DNA of 64,000 bases, from IMG/VR virus record IMGVR_UViG_3300046804_004994, positions 1 to 64,000 of that record; one strand, given 5' to 3'. Made by a program: the position numbers and the translations under genes. The stretch comes from a virus. Of the stretch, positions 4,758 through 54,587 are shown one piece after another (the first letter of the stretch is position 1; the number at the start of each line of letters is the position of its first letter). A model generated the notes under the pieces. That model worked only from the letters and a program-made list of their open reading frames with translations. It had not been told where the DNA came from and did not search any database.

Positions 4758-5957
4758 TTAATGATATCCATTACGAAGTTTGACTAAGCTCGATGAACTA
4801 GGATTATAACCATCAAACGGTGCAATAAAATAATATCCTAGCCTTATAGCGTTATCACTGTTTGATGTTCCGCCATATGCTATTGGACTACCAGGTGTTG
4901 TTCTAGTAAAATTCATTATTTCATATGCTTTAAGCCCGTTATATCCTCCTTGGGAGGTCCAACCTTTTATATTTGAATAATAAAACGGAGCAGATAAGCT
5001 GTCACTAGTGGTAGTATTCCAATCATATGGTGAAAACCCTGACACAGACCATAAAATTAATTGATTGTCAGAGTATGTTGAATTATCATTATTACCCAAT
5101 CCATATCGATGATTTCTAAATGAGCGTAACCATACCCAATTACCGCTTTCTGTAAATTTAAATAGCTGTCCCTGAGCGAGTGACGCAAATGTTGTTATTT
5201 CACTATCTAAATTCACATCTAATGAGTTAGAACGAGATATATTTACCATTACAATTGCGTAATCACCAACTGCTGGTTTGCCATATATTGAATCTTCGGT
5301 TAACCAAATTTGATTTAAGTAATTACTAATTATCAATTGACTATTAATAGTGGTTAAAAATGTTTTATTATAACCGGTTGTGTAAATATTATATGGGTAA
5401 ATACCTGTGGAAGACTGGTCATCTCGTTTTGTAGGACGGAGACGTTTTGTTGGCTTATTATTTACCTTTTCACCGTCATTTGTACCAGATTCAGCCAATG
5501 TTAGACCACCAGACAATACACACGGGTTAAATGTTTCTAAATCTAACCAAAATGTGTGTACCGTTGGAGCAGTAGTTACACCTGTTACAATACCATCGGT
5601 AAATGTAATAGTCTTAATGTTTGAATACGTTCCATTAAGCCCTAACGGTTCATCTGTGTTAGTCGCACTTAATAAATTGTAAATATTGGTTAATCCAATG
5701 TTACCCGCAGTGTCTTTTTGATATAAAATGTCTAAATAATTTCCTTTTAATGCAGGGTATGTAAGTTGATTCATTACTACATTAGAATCAAAATAAGCAG
5801 TGCCACCAGAAGTACTTAATTGTAAGCATGAAGGAGTGCCAGCACCGTCATAAACACGCAATTTAATACCAGTAAACCCATCAGAGTTCTGCAAATGTAA
5901 AACGCTTTTATAAGTTGATGCAATTTGTTGGTCTTGAAAGTTATATACGTTACTCAT
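4758..5957 (-). CDS. Probable tail fibre protein
   Basis: This 399-residue protein has no domain I recognise. It is rich in Tyr, Asn, Ser and Thr, with an N-terminal stretch of short beta-type repeats (LQNSDGFTGIKLRVYDGAG) like those of fibre shafts and a Trp/Tyr-rich second half from about residue 230. A TATAAATA element 10 bases before the start marks it as separately transcribed late. Its place between fibre genes suggests an accessory fibre or tip protein. Confidence 0.6.
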   Translation of the reverse strand: MSNVYNFQDQQIASTYKSVLHLQNSDGFTGIKLRVYDGAGTPSCLQLSTSGGTAYFDSNVVMNQLTYPALKGNYLDILYQKDTAGNIGLTNIYNLLSATNTDEPLGLNGTYSNIKTITFTDGIVTGVTTAPTVHTFWLDLETFNPCVLSGGLTLAESGTNDGEKVNNKPTKRLRPTKRDDQSSTGIYPYNIYTTGYNKTFLTTINSQLIISNYLNQIWLTEDSIYGKPAVGDYAIVMVNISRSNSLDVNLDSEITTFASLAQGQLFKFTESGNWVWLRSFRNHRYGLGNNDNSTYSDNQLILWSVSGFSPYDWNTTTSDSLSAPFYYSNIKGWTSQGGYNGLKAYEIMNFTRTTPGSPIAYGGTSNSDNAIRLGYYFIAPFDGYNPSSSSLVKLRNGYH

Positions 5958-5967
5958 CGCTTCTAAT

Positions 5968-5975
5968 TATTTATA
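5968..5975 (-). promoter_or_regulatory. Late promoter-like TATAAATA
   Basis: Full T4-type core, 10 bases before the ATG of the 399-residue fibre gene. It lies in a 29-base gap. Confidence 0.75.
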
Positions 5976-5986
5976 CAAATTGTTGG

Positions 5987-7852
5987 TTATTCAATTTCAA
6001 ATTTACCTGAATCTATAGGATTTAATATATTTGTTTGTGTTAAACTTAATAACTTTTCTTGAATATTGTATATTTCTATAAATATTTGATTAATTACACC
6101 ACTTTGAACCAACTCATTGTTATTAATAAACGCGTCAAAATCTGATTGTAGCGTAATATTGTTAAAATCATCATTGGTAATATAACTATAACCTTTAAAT
6201 CTTAAAATACTCTGTTCATCATAACTTGCGGAAAACTTGCCTAGTAGTAAATCCTTTAAAGTTAATGTATTTTTATAAAGTTTGAACAATTCCTTGTTAA
6301 ATGTGATACTTTGAACATACTCATCTTTGTTAAATTTGATACTATCTAAATTATAATATGAAACATATGGTTCACTTAAAAGTGTTTCATAGTCTGTACG
6401 TTCTTGTAAATGAATAATCCTACTATTTATAAGTAAAAACATGTCTTCTCCATTAATATCTAACGGTAATACATTTATGTCTTTAATAGTATTGGTGCTT
6501 ATAAATTCATATGAGTAGTTCCATGTGAAATAATCAAAATTCCATGTAGCGTATTCTTTGTTCCAAATCGGTTTGAGATTATCTATGAAAGGAGCAAATT
6601 GAAAAGTTGCTAACGTTTTATTCGGTTTTGATACATACTTTTTGAATACCCTCCTATCGGTTATTACATAAAATACATTTGAATCTTGTTCAGCAAATTG
6701 AAATGAATGAAAACTCCCATCTTCAGGTTCAAGCTGATCTTCAAATTCCCATTCATTAATTTTTATAAATACATTGTTATACTGTTGTAGTATAGTTTTG
6801 TTAGAAGAACTTACTAATAAAATGTAATACGTATCATTTATCTTCCTGTATTGAATATCTTTTACAATATGCTTAGTGTGTATTGTTGCTTTGTAATTTA
6901 AATTAGTATCATAACATTTGATACAATTATTTGCAGAATCATATACAAGTACTGCTGTGTTTGAAGATCCTAATATAGTGGGTTTGTTGAATTTATCTGT
7001 ACGAGATTCATTACCAATACCGCCAACTGTTTCAACTAGATACCTGTTAAACTCTATACTAGTGTCATTATTAAAGTATCCTAATATATCATACTTATAA
7101 ATTTGATTGGTCTTACTATCACTAATAAACGCATATTTTTCTGAATCAAACGTAATATCTTCAAATTTACGAATATGCTCATCTGTATTATTATCAATTA
7201 AAGACGTATATAAAACGACTCTGAATTGATCAAATACATTATTAGAAGACATGCCAATAATGTGTGTATCTGTAATACCTAATATACCATAACCAGATTG
7301 ATCTATATATGGTATAGTTACAAACTTTTTAAGATTATCAAATTCCGGTACGTTTGCTGATAGCGTTGGTACCGCTGAGATATATGCAAATGCAGTTTTT
7401 ATTGATGTTTTTGGTACCCACTTAAAAGTAGAATCAAATACAGGGCCACTTGATAAAATTTGCCCAGTCACACCTAATGTATGTGTATAATTTACTGGAA
7501 TGTTTGTAGATCCTAAAAATAAATTAGCGTAAGTGTATATTAAATTATCAAACAATAATTGAATTTTTGTGTTGAGTGTAAAATAGTTGACAATTTCGTT
7601 AGGCTCTATAATGATGCTTTCAATAGGATTTGGAAGAGTTAGTGTCTCAACAAGATGCCTATCTAAGAAATATCTTGAAAGATATCTATCTGATGCAAAT
7701 TTATTTACTGGTTTTAATTCAATTGATCCATCGGATGGATATTTACCAGTATACGCAGTGGCGTCATCAATAACGTGAATATACCCACTATATTCTCCAC
7801 CTGTTAAATTTGTAAATAATCCACTACTAACGTAGTTAAATTTAGTTTGCAT
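5987..7852 (-). CDS. Structural protein with NHL-like propeller, probable fibre
   Basis: The 621-residue protein contains segments resembling NHL/SMP-30-type propeller blades in its middle, for example FAFISDSKTNQIYKYD-like strands near residue 245 and LVYDSANNCIKCYDTN near residue 305. The C-terminus is helical, ending in a Gln/Leu-rich stretch. The ATG shares one base with the stop of the upstream LamG gene (TAATG), so the pair is coupled. Similar short signatures occur in the two larger genes upstream, which suggests modular shuffling of propellers among these fibre genes. Function is inferred from context. Confidence 0.6.
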   Translation of the reverse strand: MQTKFNYVSSGLFTNLTGGEYSGYIHVIDDATAYTGKYPSDGSIELKPVNKFASDRYLSRYFLDRHLVETLTLPNPIESIIIEPNEIVNYFTLNTKIQLLFDNLIYTYANLFLGSTNIPVNYTHTLGVTGQILSSGPVFDSTFKWVPKTSIKTAFAYISAVPTLSANVPEFDNLKKFVTIPYIDQSGYGILGITDTHIIGMSSNNVFDQFRVVLYTSLIDNNTDEHIRKFEDITFDSEKYAFISDSKTNQIYKYDILGYFNNDTSIEFNRYLVETVGGIGNESRTDKFNKPTILGSSNTAVLVYDSANNCIKCYDTNLNYKATIHTKHIVKDIQYRKINDTYYILLVSSSNKTILQQYNNVFIKINEWEFEDQLEPEDGSFHSFQFAEQDSNVFYVITDRRVFKKYVSKPNKTLATFQFAPFIDNLKPIWNKEYATWNFDYFTWNYSYEFISTNTIKDINVLPLDINGEDMFLLINSRIIHLQERTDYETLLSEPYVSYYNLDSIKFNKDEYVQSITFNKELFKLYKNTLTLKDLLLGKFSASYDEQSILRFKGYSYITNDDFNNITLQSDFDAFINNNELVQSGVINQIFIEIYNIQEKLLSLTQTNILNPIDSGKFEIE

Positions 7853-9291
7853 TAGTATTTGTTAAATGTTATATCATTAATATTTACGTTCGCTGGTAAG
7901 ATTTGCGCTAATTTTTGTCGAACTATATTTTTGATCTTTTCTTGTGTTGGACTATCTTCAATCTGACTATTTTTTATCAAAATATTAATATTGTTGCTCT
8001 TATGTCCTGGTGCATCTAATTTAAACACTCTTTCAATTTGATCTAGTTCATTACGTTGATCAGCTGGTAAACTCATTATACCGTCTTGCATTTTTATACC
8101 GTTGAATGTTAAAAATCTAATTTCATCATCTTTTAACGCTACATCATACAACTTAAATTGTTTCACACTACAATTATCAACAAAGTAATACCCAGGCTGA
8201 TTAAGATATTTAAACAGCGGTGTGTTATTATAAAATCCAGTACATCCAATTGCTATACCATCTTGTATGATGTTTTGAAAAGTGTATGTCATTGGCGGGA
8301 TAGTCACGTTAGTATACAATTTACCATCGACAAACACGCTAATGTTTCCTTGATTTGTATCAAGTCGTAAAGCAAAATGATGCCATCCTGTTGTAAACAT
8401 AGAAATATCTACAGGAATACTTACATCTTCTATAGATCGATTATTTTGAACATTTTTAAGTCTTACTTTAAATGTAAATTGTTGTTCTGGATGATTTTCT
8501 TTTAAATATGTGTAATTTGTAAGATTGTATAGTTGTTTGCGGGTGTCACTATATTTGTAATAATTATCCTTTACACCTAACAATGTAAAATCATATACAG
8601 TTTGATTAACTTCGTCAATTTTTAACATTGCTAGTTCTGAACTAACAGATAATAATACAATTGGGTACTGCTTTAATCCTTTATCTGTATATTCTCTAAC
8701 TATATCAACACTTAATAGTCGAAGCGTTGTTGTGGTCAATTCAGTAAGTGCTTGCAATAGATCAATTTTAAATAGAGGAACAAATGAACTGTTATATTTT
8801 GTAATGTGCGGTTTAGTTGCACCGCCGTGCAAAACATAGATATTATTTGATCTATCAATTACAAAATTTTCTATACCATTTTCAGATTTTACACATCTAC
8901 TTTTATCATCTAATCCAGATTCTGCAAAATCATAAGTCTCGTAAACAAGATAATCTTTATTACTACGAGATGTTTCATCTAAAGTATTGTAAATATATAA
9001 CACTTTATTTTCAGTGAACTTTTTTGTAAGTCTTCCTTTAAATCCGTATACAACATCATTATGCGCAATAATAGAGTCCACATCATAGTATGAATTTCCA
9101 CCAGTGACAGCTTTCATTAATGTTTCTTGTTCTGTCACAAAATTATACTTTGTGACGTCTCCAGTTTTTGATGTTAAAAAGTAAATATCAGTTTCAGTGG
9201 AGTAAGAAGCAATATAATCTACAGAACGTTGCCCTGCAGAATCATAAATTGCGCCAGATGCAGTGTATTTTGCTAATTTTGGTATACTCAT
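7852..9291 (-). CDS. Fibre/adhesin with propeller-like N-half and LamG/ConA-like C-half
   Basis: I place the start at the ATG at 9291 (MSIPKLAKYTASG, 479 residues). A longer frame exists upstream, but its 61 extra residues are only Gln/His/Arg repeats read out of frame through the tandem repeat of the preceding gene. Residues about 60-200 resemble propeller blades. Residues about 270-420 form a LamG-like jellyroll: GWHHFALRLDTNQGNISVFV, then DGKLY, GIAIGC and FKLYDVALKDDEI. LamG domains bind glycans or proteins. The start lies 2 bases after the stop of the 903-residue stalk protein. Confidence 0.75.
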   Translation of the reverse strand: MSIPKLAKYTASGAIYDSAGQRSVDYIASYSTETDIYFLTSKTGDVTKYNFVTEQETLMKAVTGGNSYYDVDSIIAHNDVVYGFKGRLTKKFTENKVLYIYNTLDETSRSNKDYLVYETYDFAESGLDDKSRCVKSENGIENFVIDRSNNIYVLHGGATKPHITKYNSSFVPLFKIDLLQALTELTTTTLRLLSVDIVREYTDKGLKQYPIVLLSVSSELAMLKIDEVNQTVYDFTLLGVKDNYYKYSDTRKQLYNLTNYTYLKENHPEQQFTFKVRLKNVQNNRSIEDVSIPVDISMFTTGWHHFALRLDTNQGNISVFVDGKLYTNVTIPPMTYTFQNIIQDGIAIGCTGFYNNTPLFKYLNQPGYYFVDNCSVKQFKLYDVALKDDEIRFLTFNGIKMQDGIMSLPADQRNELDQIERVFKLDAPGHKSNNINILIKNSQIEDSPTQEKIKNIVRQKLAQILPANVNINDITFNKY

Positions 9292-9292
9292 A

Positions 9293-12004
<2,712 letters not shown>

Positions 12005-40745: not shown

Positions 40746-41685
40746 CTCTTTCCTCCTTGTTCTTGAAAAATTCTGGTGTGTTAACTTTAAATAGTAAATT
40801 ACCGATTTTAACAACGATACCTTCAAATTCTCCTAGTCTACCAGCAACAGTAGATGCTGTATCTAATAATTTTTGGTACATTGCAGCTTGCACAGGTGTT
40901 AATTGATTGATTATATATGCTGATAATTCTTTACGTGCTCGAACATCGACATGTTTTAATGATTTTGATTTTAATGTATTATCTAAATCAGGATATTGTC
41001 TGTATAAATCTGATATAACATTTAACGCATTAACAGTTTCCATACGGAGATTAATATCTGGGAAAACGTCAATTCCCGCTGGTAAAAATTTCACTTCTTT
41101 ATTTGTCAATTTTAATAATTTAGGCAAAACATGGTTTATAGGTTTTCCATTGCTGTCTGATACGTTAATTATTACAAATGTTGACCACGTTCCTAATTTT
41201 GTAATATCATAATCTGTTGCCACAAAATATACAGCTCCTGGTTTGTTTTCACGTTCAAGAGCAAGCGGTGAATATAACCACTCTGCTTGAATAGTAATAC
41301 CGTTTTTATTATTTTCAAATGCAGATGCTACTAATTCTTGCAATTTATAAAAATTCTCTTTGAATGCTCTTTTTACAGGTTCATACTTAATTCTTGTTTC
41401 AAATTCATTAGGATCGGTTACTACACCGGAGTAACTGCTTTGCATGAAAAATTTATGATCTGGTAAAACACCAAACTTTAATGCAATCCCATCAGCTTTT
41501 TCAGATAAATTTGCATTCTCAGAATGCAATATACCATTATGTTGTTTTAAATATTCTACCACTTCTTTAAAAGTAAAGAAATTCATAGAAAGATGTGATT
41601 TTGTAGGATGATATAAATGTTGAATACCAACGCGGTCACCTTCACGACCTTCAATAATAAATTGTTTAAATGTTAATGGTGACAT
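40732..41685 (-). CDS. ATP-dependent ligase-like nucleotidyltransferase (RNA/DNA ligase superfamily)
   Basis: I choose the ATG at 41685 (MSPLTFKQFIIEGREGD, 317 residues) because its N-terminus matches that of neighbouring late proteins; an in-frame ATG lies 11 codons upstream. Motif I is SEKADGIALK with the adenylated Lys64, the middle has QAEWLYSPLA, and motifs IV and V are EGIVVK (288-293) and LFKV (298-301). This is the order of covalent nucleotidyltransferases. No C-terminal OB domain is obvious, which favours an RNA-ligase-type enzyme. It overlaps the genes on both sides, forming a tight three-gene cassette. Confidence 0.8.
   Translation of the reverse strand: MSPLTFKQFIIEGREGDRVGIQHLYHPTKSHLSMNFFTFKEVVEYLKQHNGILHSENANLSEKADGIALKFGVLPDHKFFMQSSYSGVVTDPNEFETRIKYEPVKRAFKENFYKLQELVASAFENNKNGITIQAEWLYSPLALERENKPGAVYFVATDYDITKLGTWSTFVIINVSDSNGKPINHVLPKLLKLTNKEVKFLPAGIDVFPDINLRMETVNALNVISDLYRQYPDLDNTLKSKSLKHVDVRARKELSAYIINQLTPVQAAMYQKLLDTASTVAGRLGEFEGIVVKIGNLLFKVNTPEFFKNKEERDAKL
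40751..40758 (-). promoter_or_regulatory. Strong Shine-Dalgarno deciding NMNAT-like start
   Basis: AAGGAGGA lies 5 bases before the ATG at 40745, inside the end of the ligase-like gene. It is the clearest ribosome-binding site in the window and rules out the longer frame. Confidence 0.9.
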
Positions 41686-42379
41686 TGTAGGTGTTTTGTA
41701 GTGTTTGTAACCCTTCATGTAATATTTCTTTGACTTTATTTATAGGATATAATGATTTCAATTTATCTACAATACTAGGTATATTAGATAAATCATTTGC
41801 AACTGCATGTTTATCATCAAATAATATTTGTGCAATTTCATTTACATTATTTGTTATATATGCATTAGTTTCCCTATTTAACAATGCTTCATTTGATAGT
41901 TTGCAGTTGCGATATTTTGCTAAACTAGCTAATAAAATATTTCGATGCATACCTTTTAAAGGTGGTTCCTCATTATTTGCCATTCTAAATTTAGCAAAAG
42001 GAATGTCATTGAATAACATGAAGTCTACTTGAGCATATTGATTAGTATTGGGAACCGCTGCTTTAAAATGTACTGATATTCCCGTTTTCTTAATATATTC
42101 CTTAGGATCTAAACCATTTACTGTGCAAAAATCTGTTAACTTATTAATAAGTTCCGATTTTTTAGAAGCATCTACAGCAATATCAATATCACCGCTTATA
42201 TCTTTTTTTCCTGTTGATCCTAACAAATTATTTTTCAAATCTATGTTTAAAATACGTTCTAATTCATACACAACAGTGAACACATCATCTCGTTGTACCG
42301 GAGATGTTGCACTAGAACCATCAGGATTTTTATAAACATTGCCTCCTTCTTGAAGAATATATTGCTTAAATGTTATCAT
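41666..42379 (-). CDS. Pol-beta-superfamily nucleotidyltransferase
   Basis: The 237-residue protein has the minimal nucleotidyltransferase signature LLGSTGKKDISGDIDIAVD, with Gly54-Ser55 and Asp64/Asp66, and a third acidic residue in AQVDFMLF (Asp119). The N-terminus MITFKQYILQEGG resembles T4 capsid-targeting sequences. Its substrate might be an RNA or DNA 3' end or a protein. A TATAAATA 6 bases before the ATG includes the stop codon of the terminase gene. It overlaps the ligase-like gene by 20 bases. Confidence 0.85.
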   Translation of the reverse strand: MITFKQYILQEGGNVYKNPDGSSATSPVQRDDVFTVVYELERILNIDLKNNLLGSTGKKDISGDIDIAVDASKKSELINKLTDFCTVNGLDPKEYIKKTGISVHFKAAVPNTNQYAQVDFMLFNDIPFAKFRMANNEEPPLKGMHRNILLASLAKYRNCKLSNEALLNRETNAYITNNVNEIAQILFDDKHAVANDLSNIPSIVDKLKSLYPINKVKEILHEGLQTLQNTYNVTINI

Positions 42380-42385
42380 TTTGAT

Positions 42386-42393
42386 TATTTATA
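42386..42393 (-). promoter_or_regulatory. Late promoter-like TATAAATA
   Basis: Six bases before the ATG of the Pol-beta-type gene; contains the stop codon of the terminase C-part. Confidence 0.75.
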
Positions 42394-45124
42394 AAAATCT
42401 CCATCCTTGATTATGTAAATCTTCAATATCTAAATTATCTTGAGAATTACCACCAAACATTATTGGCAATGCCTGTCCTTCTGTAACACTATCTTTTTGA
42501 TTTGAATATATTGATGTGGGATTCATAAAGTATTGAATACCATAATCTAATTGTCTTAATAATAATGGCTTGTTATTATCATCTTTTTGTACTATTTCAA
42601 AATATTTTTCTACCAATGCATCGTGCAATATAAACAATGCCCATGCTAATGACATTACTCTATCGTCAAAATTGCCTGAAGATGCAGACCATGAATTATT
42701 AGGATTGCGTGTAAATGTTTTTAATTCATTCAATGTGTGTATATCCTTTAAATGTACTGACTTAACGGTGTTGAGCCAATATCTTTTATTACTGATTGAT
42801 TGATATTTTACATTAACATGTGAGATAATACCTAAGCGCAACTTATCCCGCGCTGCCAAAGAAGATCCATAATTTACGATATTCTCGTAATTAAAATCTT
42901 TTCGTAAATTATCTACTACAACCATGCCGCAATTGTTTCTTTCAATTAATACAATTGGTTTGCCCCAGTTTAATAATATTTCATGTAATCTTGGAGTAAA
43001 CTCAATAGGTGTAATCTCGTTTGAATGATATTGAGCAACTTGTTTAATATCTCGCAAATCTGTAATATCTAATATTTGCATGCAAGTTGCATCTTTTCCT
43101 ATACCTTCACTTATATCTACACCAACAACATAAATGCGTTCTGGATTTGGTGTTTCCCATATTTTATAATGCCCGTTATCTAATAAGATTTCAGGTTCAC
43201 AACATTCTGTTTTAAGTCTTTCAAATAAATCAATATCAATTGAAGTTTCACCAAGTTGTAAAAATTTACAATTAAACTCACGATCAAACATTGCAGGATC
43301 ACTTAAGGATGCCATTGTTTCGCGTTTCCATTTCTCGCCACGACCAGGTACTTGATCCCATGTCACTTTCATATATTTCCAACCATTTTCTTCTTTTACG
43401 GCGCCTTCATATATTTTATAAAACAATCCACTAGTATCACGTGGGGTAGATGACATGATAATTTTAGATTTCTTAGAAGATGAAATAATTGGATACACTG
43501 ATGCCCAGAATTCTTCTAAGAGCCCTGATTCAATAAAATCTGCTTCATCGACTAGTAGACAATTATGCAACACTATATTGTTTGCTATAAGAGTGTTGTC
43601 TTCTGTTTCCACGATATCATATGTTTCATATATATCATCTAAAACTTTCTTGGATGTGACTATATCAAGACTATTAAATGTTTCAATATAATCACCTATT
43701 TTAATATCTTCTGCAGATTTAAAAATGTTATTTGTTTTATCAACTAATACTTTATGATCAGCAGTTAACTTGATAATGTTCCCATTTTTTGTGGTCAATT
43801 GTAACACGTTTCTTTTAGTCTTGTGTGTAAATAAAAATCTATTAAATCCTTGCGAAGTTAGTACATGTTCACTAGGAATAGTAATATTAATAATTTGCAC
43901 ACCCTCTTTATATTTTGATTTAAAATAATCAACATATCTAAAATATGATTTTTTCTGTGTCGGGTTTTTCAACTTTATCGAATCGAACACGAATAATACT
44001 TTATATCCTGCTGAAATTATTGCATCTATTTTAATTTTATCTTTTTCAAACGGAGATGACCATAAATGATGACGTTCCATAACTTCAACAACAATTTGAT
44101 GCTGTTCATCGACCCCGTCTACAATATAACCTTTAATATTTTTTTGACGCTCCAAAGAATAAGATTGTGTTTTTTCTATTATTTTTAATAGAAAGTTTTC
44201 GTTAGCACCAATATTTGTTTTGTATCCATATGTATTAGTTCCATTATTCTTTAAACGCTTTTCAATATTCTCACGGCATTTATTATTACATTTCTTTGAA
44301 CATGTTGTAGCGTAACATAAAAATGTTTCATGAAACATTTTCACTGCATTACCACATACTAAACATTTAGGGATATCATATATTTTGTTCACTATATGAT
44401 GTAATTTTTGTATCAGCGGCGCTTCAATCCGTTTTCCTATTACTTTTATCAATTCTTTATCAACAAAATCACATATCGAAGGATAATGCTTATTTTTGTT
44501 TGTATTTGCAGCTCTTATACGATTCTTAGCATTATACCAATCATATATGAATTTTATTTTTTCTGAATAACTTAAATTGATAAATTTCTTTTCATATTGA
44601 ATATTGCGTTTAAGCTTTTTAAATGGTATTTTATTTAGCTTGACTGGGTAAGTATATAATTCTGTTATCCCTTGACTATACCAGTCAAGTCGCTGCTTTA
44701 ATGAAGGATTTAATCTATCCATAAACTTTGTTTCGGATATTAACAACTTGCATAATTGTGGTGCATTTTTTAACTGCCTAACATACGCAACACTTTTCAA
44801 GATTGCACGTTGCTCATTAATAGAATATTGTCCTAGTTTATTATATTTTGGTATATGTTTTACACAACTACTATACCCACTTCGTAAATTGCAGAATTTA
44901 TAATACCAGTTGTGATGATCTGTAGGAATTTGAGATAAATTATATGTGAAATGATATATCCGTTGTGTTAACTCGCGTTGAATTATATGAGCTGGTAAGA
45001 ACTGAGTCTTTTTGTAAATATATCTCTTAAACTTTTTACCACGCTTTGATTTTAAAATAGCTAATAATTTAGTAGTATTATTTTGATGTATTAGTTGTTT
45101 GCACACATATCGTAACGTAAACAT
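42389..45124 (-). CDS. 17: Homing endonuclease + C-terminal split intein + terminase large subunit C-part
   Basis: The 911-residue frame has three parts. Residues 1 to about 405 are a nuclease: basic helical N-terminus, a Cys cluster (CLVCGNAV with C254/C257, then C270, C275, C279, C283) and a VSR-like core GYIVDGVDE, VVEVMERHHLW and GYKVLFVFD. Residues about 409-521 are an intein C-half: LTADHKVLV (block B), EDIKIGDYIE, YDIVETEDNTLIANN and the end VLHN followed by Cys522. Residues 522-911 are gp17 from Walker B LLVDEADF through MSSTP (558-561) to the nuclease domain (GVDISEG, ERNNCG, DDRVMSLAWAL). It has its own TATAAATA. Confidence 0.9.
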   Translation of the reverse strand: MFTLRYVCKQLIHQNNTTKLLAILKSKRGKKFKRYIYKKTQFLPAHIIQRELTQRIYHFTYNLSQIPTDHHNWYYKFCNLRSGYSSCVKHIPKYNKLGQYSINEQRAILKSVAYVRQLKNAPQLCKLLISETKFMDRLNPSLKQRLDWYSQGITELYTYPVKLNKIPFKKLKRNIQYEKKFINLSYSEKIKFIYDWYNAKNRIRAANTNKNKHYPSICDFVDKELIKVIGKRIEAPLIQKLHHIVNKIYDIPKCLVCGNAVKMFHETFLCYATTCSKKCNNKCRENIEKRLKNNGTNTYGYKTNIGANENFLLKIIEKTQSYSLERQKNIKGYIVDGVDEQHQIVVEVMERHHLWSSPFEKDKIKIDAIISAGYKVLFVFDSIKLKNPTQKKSYFRYVDYFKSKYKEGVQIINITIPSEHVLTSQGFNRFLFTHKTKRNVLQLTTKNGNIIKLTADHKVLVDKTNNIFKSAEDIKIGDYIETFNSLDIVTSKKVLDDIYETYDIVETEDNTLIANNIVLHNCLLVDEADFIESGLLEEFWASVYPIISSSKKSKIIMSSTPRDTSGLFYKIYEGAVKEENGWKYMKVTWDQVPGRGEKWKRETMASLSDPAMFDREFNCKFLQLGETSIDIDLFERLKTECCEPEILLDNGHYKIWETPNPERIYVVGVDISEGIGKDATCMQILDITDLRDIKQVAQYHSNEITPIEFTPRLHEILLNWGKPIVLIERNNCGMVVVDNLRKDFNYENIVNYGSSLAARDKLRLGIISHVNVKYQSISNKRYWLNTVKSVHLKDIHTLNELKTFTRNPNNSWSASSGNFDDRVMSLAWALFILHDALVEKYFEIVQKDDNNKPLLLRQLDYGIQYFMNPTSIYSNQKDSVTEGQALPIMFGGNSQDNLDIEDLHNQGWRFL
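43562..43900 (-). other. Split intein, C-terminal half (approximate N-boundary)
   Basis: This is the Int-C coding segment of about 113 residues, from about VQIINITIPSEHVLTSQGF to the terminal His-Asn. His457 in TADHKV is the block-B histidine, and the last residue Asn521 is the cyclising Asn. Cys522 is the +1 nucleophile of the C-extein. The left protein boundary with the endonuclease is estimated. Confidence 0.88.
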
Positions 45125-45130
45125 ATCATA

Positions 45131-45138
45131 TATTTATA
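45131..45138 (-). promoter_or_regulatory. Late promoter-like TATAAATA (terminase C-part)
   Basis: Six bases before the ATG of the endonuclease/Int-C/terminase gene, inside the 19-base gap between the two terminase genes. It makes the second gene independently expressible. Confidence 0.75.
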
Positions 45139-45143
45139 TTGAC

Positions 45144-45782
45144 TTATGATATTTCAACAAGCTCCCCGTCAAAATATGTTTCGTCAATATATTTATGAAA
45201 CTGTTGAATAGTTGTATTATATAATATTCCTTTATTATCTATAAACTGAATTTCAGAATCACCTGATATGCAATTGCAAGAACTACCTCGACCAGCAGTT
45301 CCTGTAGTAGTTGTAATACCAATAGAACTACCATTTTCTAATTCCATCGATTCTTTACCATATTCCTTTACAGGGCTTTTAATCCAGTTTGGCAATGCTT
45401 CATATGCCATTCGAACACGTTTAAATATCAATTTAGCAGTACCTTCTTTGTTTGCAACAATTAATATAAATTGGCTTTCATTAAAAAGTGCTTGCCATAA
45501 ACATAGAATCGTACTAATGGTGCTCTTCCCCGTTTGACGCGAGAACAATAAACAAGAAAAGCGATTATCTACCATCATTTTCAATGCGTCTTTCTGATAC
45601 TTGTGAAGTTTAATCTTTTGCTTACCATCATCAAGATTAATAATGTAGAAATAATTTTCTGCAAAATATAAAATATCTTTTTGACATTTTTGAATTTCTT
45701 TCACCATTTCAGGTGTATATTCAAATGTGGTCCCAACTGCAGGCAGGTTGGGATTATTTAAATAGTGTGATTTTTTAGCCAT
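45144..45782 (-). CDS. 17: Terminase large subunit N-part fused to N-terminal split intein
   Basis: The start is at ATG 45782 (MAKKSHYLNNPNLPAVG, 212 residues); an upstream in-frame extension runs into the divergent gene and is rejected. Residues 1-170 are the gp17 ATPase N-part: KLHKYQKDALKMM, Walker A SRQTGKST (81-88), and ending TAGRGSSCN, which in T4 gp17 lies just before Walker B. Residues 171-212 are an intein N-half starting CISGDSEIQF and ending DGELVEIS, then TAA. Trans-splicing with the next gene would give a 560-residue terminase (T4 gp17 is 610). Confidence 0.92.
   Translation of the reverse strand: MAKKSHYLNNPNLPAVGTTFEYTPEMVKEIQKCQKDILYFAENYFYIINLDDGKQKIKLHKYQKDALKMMVDNRFSCLLFSRQTGKSTISTILCLWQALFNESQFILIVANKEGTAKLIFKRVRMAYEALPNWIKSPVKEYGKESMELENGSSIGITTTTGTAGRGSSCNCISGDSEIQFIDNKGILYNTTIQQFHKYIDETYFDGELVEIS
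45147..45272 (-). other. Split intein, N-terminal half (42 residues)
   Basis: This Int-N coding segment begins with Cys171 of the N-part protein (codon at 45272-45270) within block A, CISGDSEI. It ends at the stop codon after GELVEIS, the usual position just before the split site of phage split inteins. The preceding N-extein residue is Asn. Confidence 0.9.
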
Positions 45783-45787
45783 ACAAC

Positions 45788-45801
45788 AATAAATATTTAA
45801 A
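45788..45801. promoter_or_regulatory. Bidirectional late promoter-like element
   Basis: AATAAATA on the plus strand (45788-45795) overlaps TTTAAATA on the minus strand (45801-45794), centred on the palindrome TAAATATTTA. It serves the terminase N-part (minus, 11 bases to the ATG) and the acidic late gene (plus, 12 bases). Confidence 0.65.
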
Positions 45802-45807
45802 CAATAT

Positions 45808-46557
45808 ATGACAAATCCACAAGATGATATCTTTAACATCTATAAAAATATGATAACAGAAAGCAAGGATACAATGCTTCCAGGTGTGCACTTATCTGGT
45901 AAGAAAAAGGATGTTGATTCAAAAAATGCAAAATTAGCTCCGGGAGGTGCAACTGAAAATGCAAAAGATGTGGAATTAAATGATAAAAAGAAAAAACTTT
46001 CTGAAAACGTGGAAAAAATAGATGCATCAAATATAAATAAAAACATGAGCACTAAAAAGACTTTGTTTGATAAACTTTTCGAGGACGTAATGACTACGGA
46101 CCAGCCTGATGATCTAGCTGCATTAGGCGTTGATTCTGATGTTGATTCATCAGCAGATACAGATTTAACCGATGATGCTGGAGATACAGTAACCTTTACA
46201 CTTGATCGTGCAACTGCACAGGCACTTGTTGACGTATTAACTGGTGCATTAGGTGAAGCTGGTGAAGAGGAAGTTGGTGAAGAGGAAGTTGGTGAAGAGG
46301 AAGATGGTGAAGAGGAAGATGGTGAAGACGTTGCTTTTGAAGCTACTGAAATGGAAGAGCTCAGCAAAGATGGTAAAGAGCTTATGGGTAAGAATAACAA
46401 AGTTGGTGACGACAATGTAAAGCCAGTAAGCGGTAAAGCTGATAGCGGTAAAGTGCCTGCTATTGATACCGGATCTGCTGGTCCAAAGCACAAACAAGCA
46501 CCTCAAAAGGTTGGCGGCAAAGTTAGCAAGCCTGGAACAAACTTCTTTAAAGCCTAA
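45808..46557 (+). CDS. Acidic low-complexity late protein, possible prohead core/internal protein
   Basis: The 249-residue protein is hydrophilic and strongly acidic in its second half, with four GEEEV/GEEED repeats (about residues 152-171) and a Lys/Gly-rich tail. The N-terminus has an amphipathic helix ending in Ile-Thr-Glu-Ser (residues 16-19), like the T4 prohead-protease site. T4 prohead core and internal proteins have similar charge and cleavage patterns. It is divergent from the terminase N-part, sharing a 25-base promoter region, and is followed by a strong terminator. The function is inferred from composition and context. Confidence 0.6.
   Translation: MTNPQDDIFNIYKNMITESKDTMLPGVHLSGKKKDVDSKNAKLAPGGATENAKDVELNDKKKKLSENVEKIDASNINKNMSTKKTLFDKLFEDVMTTDQPDDLAALGVDSDVDSSADTDLTDDAGDTVTFTLDRATAQALVDVLTGALGEAGEEEVGEEEVGEEEDGEEEDGEDVAFEATEMEELSKDGKELMGKNNKVGDDNVKPVSGKADSGKVPAIDTGSAGPKHKQAPQKVGGKVSKPGTNFFKA
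46261..46320. repeat. Four tandem 15-bp units (coding)
   Basis: The unit ggtgaagaggaagtt occurs twice, followed by two copies ending in gat. Each encodes Gly-Glu-Glu-Glu-Val or Gly-Glu-Glu-Glu-Asp in the acidic late protein. Slippage would change the length in frame. Confidence 0.95.
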
Positions 46558-46615
46558 AAATTATTAAGTTTTACTGTATTGTACTACTAATAGCACAATT
46601 CATTAAAAATATCTT

Positions 46616-46655
46616 AAGAAGCTTCTTAAACTTGTTTTAAGAAGCTTCCTTTTTT
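46616..46655 (+). terminator. Rho-independent terminator
   Basis: A perfect 13-bp stem, gaagcttcttaaa (46618-46630) with tttaagaagcttc (46636-46648), has a 5-base loop and is followed by c and six T (46650-46655). It lies 60 bases after the acidic late protein on the same strand. It is followed after one base by the TATAAATA of the next gene, so the two genes are insulated from each other. Confidence 0.9.
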
Positions 46656-46656
46656 G

Positions 46657-46664
46657 TATAAATA
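46657..46664 (+). promoter_or_regulatory. Late promoter-like TATAAATA
   Basis: Eight bases before the ATG at 46673 and one base after the U-tract of the terminator. Confidence 0.8.
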
Positions 46665-46672
46665 AGAGTATA

Positions 46673-47050
46673 ATGAATGTATCATTCAAACAGTTTGTAG
46701 AAAATGTTATTCCGCAACATAGAAGAGATAAGGCAGCATTTGGTGCTCACGCTTCTCATGGATATACAGCAAAAAGTGAGTTGATGATTCCAGATCGTTA
46801 TAAAGTAAGCGGCGGTGTAGAAGAAAATATTTTAAACAAATTACGCAAACAACCAGGTACAAAAGTATGTGGTCCAAATTTACTTTCACATATTGCTAAA
46901 ACATATCCAAATGTAATCAATACTCTTAACATGGGTGAAGAAAAACAATTAGGTCGAACGGGTAATAACACATATCAAGTGTTTATTAAAAAAGAAATGC
47001 ATAATAACATGCCCATTTATAAAGTATATAGTAAAAAGGAGGGTGTATAA
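46673..47050 (+). CDS. Hypothetical late protein with capsid-targeting-like N-terminus
   Basis: The 125-residue protein starts MNVSFKQFVENVIPQHRR. The Phe-Lys-Gln-Phe-Val segment resembles the N-termini of the nucleotidyltransferase and ligase-like proteins. The rest is basic, with a helix-rich middle and a short C-terminal beta segment; no family is recognised. It lies between the terminator and the neck gene, whose ATG overlaps its stop region by one base. It may be a head-associated or packaged protein. Confidence 0.65.
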   Translation: MNVSFKQFVENVIPQHRRDKAAFGAHASHGYTAKSELMIPDRYKVSGGVEENILNKLRKQPGTKVCGPNLLSHIAKTYPNVINTLNMGEEKQLGRTGNNTYQVFIKKEMHNNMPIYKVYSKKEGV

Positions 47051-53209: not shown

Positions 53210-53233
53210 GGCATATAAATAATGATATATGCC
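53210..53233 (+). promoter_or_regulatory. Hairpin overlapping late promoter and start codon of homing endonuclease
   Basis: Ggcatata (53210-53217) can pair with tatatgcc (53226-53233), giving an 8-bp stem with an 8-base loop. The right arm contains the ATG (53229) and the left arm overlaps the late promoter TATAAATA (53214-53221). Transcripts reading through from upstream would hide the start codon, while those started at the late promoter would lack the left arm. Confidence 0.7.
53214..53221 (+). promoter_or_regulatory. Late promoter-like TATAAATA (homing endonuclease)
   Basis: Seven bases before the ATG at 53229; overlaps the left arm of the hairpin at 53210-53233. Confidence 0.8.
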
Positions 53234-54587
53234 GAAACCAACTATTTTTACACATGATCAAATTAATTCTATTGTATCGAAATATGTGTCGGGATGTAAT
53301 ATCTACCCAATTGCTAAAGAATTCAATGTAAGTGAGAACACTATTAAAAAGCTATTAATATCTAATAATATTTCTTTACGCAGCCGTAAAGAATCATATC
53401 AATATCGAATTAATACTAATGCAGCCGCAAATGTTAAGTACACGTCATCTACTGATGTGTCTAATATTATTGCTCAGTATAATAAAGGTGCAACAATAGC
53501 ATATATTGCAAATACGTTTAAAACATCTCAAACCAGCATACGCACAGTGCTAATCAAAAATAATATAAAATTAAAAACACGAAGTGAAGCTAAATTAGCA
53601 GCTTCAAGTGCCAATGCTAATCTAATTAATGCTGCTGAAGATATTATAAATATGTATAATAAAAACTGCTCAATTAATTCTATATCTAAAAAGTATAATA
53701 TTCCAGGATACCGTATTAAACAGCTGTTATTAACACGTAATATACATATACTTCCAAACGCGGTGCATGTAATACCAAAACATATTCGAGAACAAGTAAT
53801 AGTGCAATATAGTAATGAAACATCTATCAATGAACTATCTAAAACTCACAACATTAGCGCGTCAACAATAAAATTAATACTTAAAACATATAATGTTCCA
53901 TTGCGTGGCAAAGCTGCTGCTCGGAATACCTCAAAATATCGATCACAATATACGAGGACTCGTTCGAAAATTACAAGCACTGAAGACATTAAACGTATTA
54001 TAGATATGTATAATGAAGGGTATACACCTACAGATATAACAAAATGCTTTAATGTATCATCAGGCACTATATTAAAAATACTTAAAGATAATAACATATA
54101 TATTCGAACAAAGTCAGAAGCACAGCGACAACATCTACTTTATAAGAAAAAACAAAATCTCAGTTTTCAAAAATATGGAGTTTCAAACCCGATGCAACAT
54201 CCGTTGATATTTGAAAGGTCTATGAAAAATTCATTCAGATATAAAAGCATTACCATTAACGGTAAAATATTTGACAGGATTCAAGGATTTGAAGATGTGG
54301 GAATACAGTATGTTTTAAACACATTTAATTTATCAGTTACAGATATTATTAATGGAAGAACAGGTATACCATCAATTTCATATATTGATGAAAATGGAAA
54401 AAAACGTGTACATTTTCCTGATATATATCTTCCTACATTGAATACCTTAATAGAAGTAAAAAGTGAGTTTATTTTAAATAAAAATCTGGAACGTGTTTTA
54501 ACAAAACGAAATAGCGCAATACAACAAGGTTATAAGTATATAATATTGGTATTTAATAGTAAAAAACAATTTCTATACACTATTTAA
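53229..54587 (+). CDS. Free-standing homing endonuclease with five HTH repeats
   Basis: The 452-residue protein has five helix-turn-helix-like repeats at about residues 8-51, 74-117, 135-174, 186-226 and 250-293. Each has the plan of a helix, IAKEFNVSENTIKKLL-like turn, then an Asn-Asn-Ile and basic end. Then comes FQKYGVSNPMQHPLIFE (313-329), a motif common in phage homing endonucleases. The nuclease core has FPDIYLPTLNTLIEVKS with Asp398, Glu409 and Lys411, and later GYKYIILVFNSKK, as in VSR/PD-(D/E)XK enzymes. It cuts DNA lacking itself and spreads by repair. No flanking gene is visibly broken. It overlaps gp61 by 4 bases at the 3' end. Confidence 0.85.
   Translation: MPKPTIFTHDQINSIVSKYVSGCNIYPIAKEFNVSENTIKKLLISNNISLRSRKESYQYRINTNAAANVKYTSSTDVSNIIAQYNKGATIAYIANTFKTSQTSIRTVLIKNNIKLKTRSEAKLAASSANANLINAAEDIINMYNKNCSINSISKKYNIPGYRIKQLLLTRNIHILPNAVHVIPKHIREQVIVQYSNETSINELSKTHNISASTIKLILKTYNVPLRGKAAARNTSKYRSQYTRTRSKITSTEDIKRIIDMYNEGYTPTDITKCFNVSSGTILKILKDNNIYIRTKSEAQRQHLLYKKKQNLSFQKYGVSNPMQHPLIFERSMKNSFRYKSITINGKIFDRIQGFEDVGIQYVLNTFNLSVTDIINGRTGIPSISYIDENGKKRVHFPDIYLPTLNTLIEVKSEFILNKNLERVLTKRNSAIQQGYKYIILVFNSKKQFLYTI

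What the first reader, a model, noticed from the sequence alone, without database searches (positions are those of the whole stretch)
42389..45782. Terminase large subunit encoded as two genes joined by a split intein
Seen: one gene carries gp17 up to TAGRGSSCN, then an intein N-half (CISGDSEI to GELVEIS) and a stop. A second gene, in another frame, carries an intein C-half (TADHKVLV, ending VLHN) followed by Cys and the gp17 Walker B LLVDEADF onward. The exteins join exactly at the Walker B strand. Known: fractured genes with split inteins (gp41-1, NrdJ-1 and IMPDH-1 types) occur in environmental phage-like DNA. Inference: the packaging motor is only assembled after protein trans-splicing, which puts a splicing step between late expression and DNA packaging.
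Basis: partly seen in the sequence, partly recalled or inferred. Interest (0 to 1): 0.9.

Follow-up and report, generated by a model that had tools for sequence, protein, structure and literature searches.

The report
Split packaging motor with fused endonuclease
In this uncultured T4-like phage the DNA-packaging motor protein is encoded as two separate genes whose products should be stitched together by a split intein; the second gene also carries, in the same reading frame, a homing endonuclease and has its own late promoter. This is a new arrangement within a known class of phage split inteins.

Summary
Gene 1 (45782-45144, minus) encodes TerL up to TAGRGSSCN, then a 42-residue intein N-part and a stop. 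Gene 2 (45124-42389) ends with the intein C-part (...VLHN), Cys+1 and the rest of TerL. Joining the exteins gives a 560-aa T4-type TerL that aligns without a gap to intein-free relatives.

(1) Residues 1-413 of gene 2 are a zinc-finger, Vsr/EDxHD-type homing endonuclease fused in frame to the intein C-part. (2) The 19-nt gap holds an exact T4-type late promoter, TATAAATA, 6 nt before the gene 2 ATG. (3) The kin are the atypically split TerL inteins (AceL/GOS/Cat), not gp41-1, NrdJ-1 or IMPDH-1.

Two other contigs, 28-32% identical in the endonuclease, have the same layout, gap and promoter, so it is no assembly error. The same TerL site carries inteins in about 60 other contigs, in nearly every layout: contiguous, endonuclease fused to the N-part, free endonuclease, and none. 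In 15 contigs an HNH endonuclease gene is nested out of frame inside a contiguous intein.

Most likely this is a trans-splicing split intein and a new variant of a known kind. Splicing itself was not tested.

The parts
45794..45801 (-). near-consensus T4-type late promoter (TTTAAATA) 11 nt before the gene 1 ATG
   Evidence: sequence only
45144..45782 (-). gene 1: TerL N-part fused to intein N-part, 212 aa
45273..45782 (-). N-extein: TerL/gp17 ATPase domain with Walker A SRQTGKS, ending TAGRGSSCN
   Evidence: PHROG 5989 8.8e-53; about 60-74% identical to intact TerL of relatives
45147..45272 (-). intein N-part, 42 aa, Cys1
   Evidence: 35-38% identical to the N-parts of L039 and L081
45131..45138 (-). 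TATAAATA, T4-type late promoter, in the 19-nt gap, 6 nt before the gene 2 ATG
   Evidence: also in the gaps of L039 and L081
42389..45124 (-). gene 2: endonuclease + intein C-part + TerL C-part, 911 aa
43886..45124 (-). homing endonuclease, residues 1-413: helical N-region, C4 zinc finger (254-279), Vsr-like EDxHD/DUF559 domain (309-413)
   Evidence: Pfam PF04480 1.1e-5, found in 3 of 3 members; model m6dc1851de936; Vsr 1vsr prob 0.99, 1cw0 prob 0.97; alignment A1
43562..43876 (-). intein C-part, residues 417-521: block B TADH, block G VLHN
   Evidence: Pfam PF14890 2.4e-7; best structural match Cat IntC 6dsl_B Z 13.8, rmsd 1.8, 102 aligned
42389..43561 (-). C-extein: Cys+1, Walker B LLVDEADF, motif III and TerL nuclease domain, 390 aa, with stop
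   Evidence: PHROG 2 2.2e-26; T4 gp17 3ezk 5.6e-22

Best explanation
This is a mobile, atypically split class 1 intein inserted in gene 17 (terL) just before the Walker B strand. Gene 1 makes TerL-N with a 42-residue intein N-part. Gene 2, from its own T4-type late promoter in the 19-nt gap, makes a 911-residue precursor: homing endonuclease, intein C-part, TerL-C. The two precursors associate, the N-part completes the Hint fold, and Cys1 / His-Asn / Cys+1 chemistry joins Asn170 to Cys171 to give a normal 560-aa TerL. The endonuclease-IntC piece is released with the N-part bound to it. The endonuclease would cut intein-free terL alleles of co-infecting phages, so that both halves and the endonuclease are copied in together. 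Shown here: the anatomy, exact extein register, intact catalytic residues, conservation of the layout in two diverged phages, fold matches, and the promoter motif. Inferred: trans-splicing, endonuclease activity and its target, and promoter use.
For: Exact extein register against intact homologues. Catalytic residues Cys1, TADH, His520-Asn521 and Cys522 present and, for the C-part, invariant among relatives. IntC model pLDDT mostly 90 or more and best match to the solved atypical TerL split intein Cat (sequence match). L039 and L081 have the same order (29-32 aa N-part, stop, 24 or 34 nt gap with TATAAATA, ATG, endonuclease-IntC-TerL-C) with endonucleases only 28-32% identical. PF04480 is found in all three, with a Vsr fold match. 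TATAAATA lies upstream of the window's late genes: 8 of 17 exact copies are within 40 nt upstream of an ORF start against 0.3 expected. Inside gene 2 there is no exact TATAAATA until the promoter of the next gene. The closest relatives lack this insertion (over 20 contigs) or carry different inteins (L002-L004, L027-L030), which points to recent acquisition. TerL homologues AceL-TerL and GOS-TerL trans-splice in vitro (PMC11766414).
Against: No splicing, cleavage or transcript data. The N-part (42 aa) is longer than those of known atypical inteins (15-37 aa). A 413-residue endonuclease sits directly on the N-terminus of the C-part, where it might hinder assembly with the N-part; no characterised split intein in the papers read has this. 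The EDxHD assignment is a remote match. The record is a 66.9-kb fragment, so an intact second terL elsewhere is not excluded.
Confidence: 0.86

Rival explanations
1. The two genes are one contiguous intein in practice: the ribosome reads through or shifts across the gap and the intein splices in cis, with the endonuclease nested at the atypical site.
For: In L039 the N-part and gene 2 are in the same frame, parted by a single TAA. Contiguous inteins with an insert at the same loop exist at this TerL site.
Against: In the window and L081 the frames differ, and the window frames are closed by two TAA codons 10 nt apart. Gap lengths differ (19, 24, 34 nt). All three gaps keep a late promoter motif and an ATG.
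Confidence: 0.06
2. A decayed insertion: terL is broken in this genome and the halves are pseudogenes, or the break is an assembly error.
For: Single contig, no reads available; no close relative with the same insertion was found.
Against: All TerL and intein catalytic motifs are intact in both halves; two diverged contigs show the same layout; two stops in the gap make a single indel insufficient.
Confidence: 0.04
3. The two halves work as a two-subunit terminase without ligation, as in genes-in-pieces ribonucleotide reductase.
For: A precedent for function without ligation exists (a nucleotide reductase gene in pieces, cited in PMC10448857).
Against: The break lies directly before the Walker B strand in the ATPase core; Cys1, block B, His-Asn and Cys+1 are all kept, which would be unneeded without splicing.
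Confidence: 0.04

Closest known systems
AceL-TerL, GOS-TerL and Cat (consensus) atypically split TerL inteins
   Same: TerL host, split after the first helix, short N-part, about 105-aa C-part, Cys+1; IntC fold match Z 13.8
   Different: 42-aa N-part (25-37 in the known ones); C-part carries a fused endonuclease; sequence similarity to CatC weak (E 0.005)
Fractured genes with split inteins (Dassa et al. 2009; paper not held, known through citing papers)
   Same: host gene broken in two at the intein, with a homing endonuclease between
   Different: here the endonuclease is not free-standing but is the N-terminal part of the intein C-part gene
EDxHD homing endonucleases (I-Bth0305I; PMC3943268)
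   Same: Vsr-like nuclease domain after a long region with a zinc finger; conserved D336, E347, H352, D362
   Different: part of a split-intein precursor; no sequence match to I-Bth0305I was obtained
Terminase of Shewanella phage Thanatos-2 (L035; PMC7530303)
   Same: TerL in two ORFs; one search shows a split intein with block A, HN and Cys+1
   Different: inserted after Walker B (YIDE|C), different endonuclease, fused to the N-part; published as a frameshift after a 1.2-kb insertion
ShiLan element (PMC11855218)
   Same: out-of-frame HNH endonuclease hidden in an in-frame insertion, as in 15 of the related loci L038-L104
   Different: not recognised as an intein; the TerL loci nest the HNH gene inside a recognisable Hint domain

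Membership tests
Atypically split class 1 TerL intein (AceL/GOS/Cat) | Cys1 (or Ser1), block B T-x-x-H, C-terminal His-Asn, Cys+1 | tested here: met
   Cys at 45272-45270, TADH, VLHN, Cys522
Atypically split class 1 TerL intein (AceL/GOS/Cat) | break near the N-terminus, before block B | tested here: met
   42-aa N-part; C-part starts at residue about 417 and aligns to Cat IntC 37-140
Atypically split class 1 TerL intein (AceL/GOS/Cat) | Hint fold of the C-part like Cat | tested here: met
   6dsl_B Z 13.8, rmsd 1.8, 102 residues; other Hint structures lie within 1 Z
Atypically split class 1 TerL intein (AceL/GOS/Cat) | splices in trans | not testable with these tools
   needs co-expression
Canonical split inteins (gp41-1, NrdJ-1, IMPDH-1) | N-part of about 90-120 aa that includes block B | tested here: not met
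   N-part 42 aa; block B lies in the C-part
Fractured gene (Dassa type) | host gene broken into two ORFs at the intein, with a homing endonuclease in between | tested here: met
Fractured gene (Dassa type) | endonuclease is a free-standing ORF | tested here: not met
   residues 1-413 of gene 2 run in frame into the intein C-part; same in L039 and L081
EDxHD / Vsr-like homing endonuclease | Vsr-like catalytic fold with conserved acidic and His residues | tested here: met
   PF04480 1.1e-5; 1vsr prob 0.99; D336, E347, E350, H352, H353, D362 invariant in 3 diverged members
EDxHD / Vsr-like homing endonuclease | cleaves the intein-free allele | not testable with these tools
   needs an in vitro cleavage assay
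T4-type late promoter | TATAAATA ahead of late genes | tested here: met
   exact copy in the gap; 8 of 17 copies within 40 nt upstream of ORF starts, 0.3 expected; absent ahead of the replication genes at 56-64 kb; activity not tested

The most novel reading that the evidence does not exclude
The TerL-C half exists only as an endonuclease-IntC fusion made from a promoter that came in with the endonuclease, so the selfish nuclease is released by the same trans-splicing event that completes the packaging motor. The TerL site shows the whole path by which atypical split inteins arise: an endonuclease enters the loop after the first intein helix (not the canonical endonuclease site), first nested, then with the gene breaking on either side of it.
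Probability: 0.5. Interest if true: 0.76.

Novelty: new variant of a known kind. Interest (0 to 1): 0.64.

Why it matters
How atypically split inteins, widely used for protein labelling, came to be broken near their N-terminus is open. One insertion site in phage TerL holds contiguous, nested, half-fused, free-endonuclease and endonuclease-less forms, which makes the path testable. It also adds a natural split intein that seems to tolerate a 413-residue domain on its C-part, and shows a T4-type late promoter motif between the two halves. If real, an essential motor and a homing nuclease are made as one precursor and parted only by protein splicing.

Tried and rejected
Pattern-based searches with the whole gene 2, the IntC-extC stretch and the endonuclease alone found no relative carrying the same element in viral contigs; the IntC-extC search returned only two intact TerL (L036, L037). 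The three-sequence alignment returned only the L039 and L081 contigs again, and genome contigs gave none. In the phage records only a short zinc-finger match in Lak phages appeared. A group I or II intron in place of an intein: no Rfam match at E<=1 in 41500-47000. An internal start for the intein C-part alone: the only candidate, GTG at residue 409, has GAGG just 2 nt upstream and no TAAATA, and there is no conserved start in the twins; not excluded. Whether the three endonuclease-IntC fusions share one origin: the Hint tree has long branches and cannot decide. Dassa 2009, Stevens 2018 and Bachmann 2015 are not held, so the exact AceL/GOS insertion sites and whether an endonuclease-IntC fusion was reported before could not be checked; none turned up in the papers searched.

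Full report
OBSERVATION. Gene 1 is TerL up to TAGRGSSCN plus a 42-residue intein N-part and a TAA. Gene 2 ends with an intein C-part (VLHN at 43562), Cys+1 and LLVDEADF... The joined exteins are 560 aa with every expected TerL motif. Homologues found in viral contigs, about 60-74% identical in the N-part and 45-56% in the C-part, run through this point without a gap; the spliced protein would have the same length, with Cys+1 in place of Leu/Val. The two halves match complementary parts of Pfam PF03237, and they are the only matches to it in the 66.9-kb record. The record is a fragment, so this is not proof of absence elsewhere.

IS IT AN ARTEFACT? In the 19-nt gap the gene 1 frame is closed at 45146-45144 and the gene 2 frame at 45136-45134, so no single indel unites the genes. 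Two other contigs, L039 and L081, have the same layout: N-part of 32 or 29 aa, stop, 24 or 34 nt, ATG, then a 912- or 902-aa gene. Identities to the window are 44-56% (TerL) and 28-32% (endonuclease), so these are not copies of one sequence.

THE MISSED PART: AN ENDONUCLEASE FUSED TO THE INTEIN C-PART. Residues 1-413 of gene 2 are conserved with L039 and L081: a helical region, a four-cysteine zinc-finger-like stretch (254-279) and a domain with invariant D336, E347, E350, H352, H353 and D362. Pfam finds DUF559 (PF04480) in all three. The predicted structure has a Vsr-like alpha-beta domain at 309-413, and Foldseek gives E. coli Vsr with probability 0.97-0.99. This fits the EDxHD homing endonucleases, a phage-derived family with long DNA-binding regions (PMC3943268). 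The last strand of this domain (residues 409-413) runs almost directly into the first strand of the intein C-part (420-423). No promoter motif or good start precedes the C-part alone, so TerL-C is probably made only as the 911-residue fusion.

THE INTEIN. [quoted passage not shown]); many other Hint structures follow at nearly the same Z, so the fold is certain and the subtype is a lead supported by the split position and the host gene. Sequence comparison also lists CatC (E 0.005). Cat was designed from AceL-TerL and GOS-TerL, natural TerL split inteins with 25- and 37-aa N-parts that trans-splice in vitro (PMC11766414). Known natural atypical N-parts are 15-37 aa (PMC13014065); here it is 42.

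THE PROMOTER IN THE GAP. TATAAATA, the T4 late promoter consensus (own knowledge), sits at 45138-45131, 6 nt before the gene 2 ATG. In the window 8 of its 17 exact copies lie within 40 nt upstream of an ORF start on the same strand, 0.3 expected; one-mismatch copies precede many structural genes, and none precedes the replication genes at 56-64 kb. L039 and L081 have the exact motif in their gaps too, 10 and 6 nt before the ATG; of same-length stretches of each contig only 0.2-0.8% hold one. In L081 gene 1 has it as well. So the halves look like two late transcription units. The motif may also act in translation starts, since most copies lie only 5-10 nt before the ATG; transcription mapping would decide.

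THE SAME SITE IN OTHER PHAGES. A DNA pattern for HN|C-x-x-x-DE found 67 contigs, about 60 of them TerL with an intein exactly here. Layouts: contiguous mini-intein (130-166 aa, for example L051, L057, L071); N-part fused to a GIY-YIG-like endonuclease with the C-part starting in an ATGA overlap (L047, L052, L075, L078); free endonuclease (L066, L099); split without endonuclease (L077, L085); and the window type (L039, L081). In a further 15, the intein ORF is contiguous (370-381 aa) but an HNH-like endonuclease gene of 227-256 aa lies in the +1 frame inside it. The intein frame has no stop across that gene in any of the 15, whereas synonymous shuffling of the endonuclease codons gives 10.7-20.3 stops on average and never zero in 2000 trials each, so the intein frame is under selection to stay open. 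A model of one of them (L040) gives a confident Hint domain and a linker of about 230 residues with pLDDT about 30. L051 is 96% identical to L040 where they align and lacks the insert. All these inserts sit in the loop after the first intein helix, the atypical split point, not at the canonical endonuclease site said to be universal (PMC6801210). A hidden out-of-frame HNH has been reported in a phage methylase insertion that is not recognised as an intein (PMC11855218). The endonuclease types named in this paragraph were read from sequence motifs, not from a family scan.

MECHANISM. The best reading is a mobile split intein whose endonuclease rides on the C-part precursor. Shown: anatomy, register, residues, conservation, folds, motif. 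Inferred: trans-splicing, homing, promoter use. The tree of Hint domains is too poorly resolved to say whether the three window-type cases share an origin.

NOVELTY. Split TerL inteins and fractured genes are known. New, as far as the held papers show, are the in-frame endonuclease-IntC fusion, the late promoter motif in the gap, and the range of layouts at one site. The key 2009 paper on fractured genes could not be read here, so priority is uncertain. I file it as a new variant of a known kind.

Noticed in passing
L038, L040, L043, L049, L054, L060, L062, L070, L074, L086, L087, L090, L096, L098, L104 (TerL intein, same site): A 227-256-aa HNH/NUMOD-like endonuclease gene is nested in the +1 frame inside a contiguous TerL intein; the intein frame has zero stops where 10-20 are expected. 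This is an overlapping-gene intein and may deserve its own report.
   Followed up: partly
L035:467-3567 (Shewanella phage Thanatos-2, MT457553): The two annotated TerL ORFs are a split intein after Walker B (YIDE|C ... SHN|CAFIP) with the endonuclease fused to the N-part; published as a frameshift caused by a 1.2-kb insertion. A cultured phage for testing trans-splicing.
   Followed up: partly
L002:6001-9011, L003:2776-5104, L004:292-3302: Close relatives of the window carry a different split intein about 12 residues downstream (DEADWIE|C ... SHN|CHLL), with the endonuclease as a separate ORF.
   Followed up: partly
L027:1775-4522, L028:488-3253, L029 and L030:4732-7497: Contiguous intein at Walker A (SRQVGK|ALALDTP...THN|S) starting with Ala and holding LAGLIDADG-like motifs; looks like a class 3 intein.
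   Followed up: no
window 4755-54600: TATAAATA or a one-mismatch copy lies 5-12 nt ahead of many structural genes and not ahead of the replication genes; Shine-Dalgarno sequences are largely missing. Near-leaderless late mRNAs or a start signal.
   Followed up: partly
window 53229-54587 (+): Free-standing 452-aa protein with repeated HTH motifs and a DUF7487/TnsA-like nuclease domain, with its own TATAAATA; probably another homing endonuclease, next to the primase gene.
   Followed up: no
L077 and L085 (about 616 nt intein): Split TerL intein at the window's site with no endonuclease; the region between the halves is only 88 nt.
   Followed up: no
L102, about 1260-1540 of the reverse strand: A mini-intein with one in-frame stop (VLT*HGFEKF) where relatives have VLTxxGF; suggests stop-codon reassignment in that phage.
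   Followed up: no
L031:4405-4995 and 4992-6623 (Sinorhizobium phage phiM12): Two TerL-like genes in tandem; gp17.2 matches the ATPase N-part and the start of the C-part only.
   Followed up: no
L045, L056, L069: Inteins in another protein (HN|CLxFDELDL), two of them with a zinc-finger-like segment inside; not T4-type TerL.
   Followed up: no
window 9290-9690: Thr/Ser-rich simple repeat (TTSTTTSTTT...) at the end of a 903-aa structural protein, read as QQH repeats in another frame.
   Followed up: no
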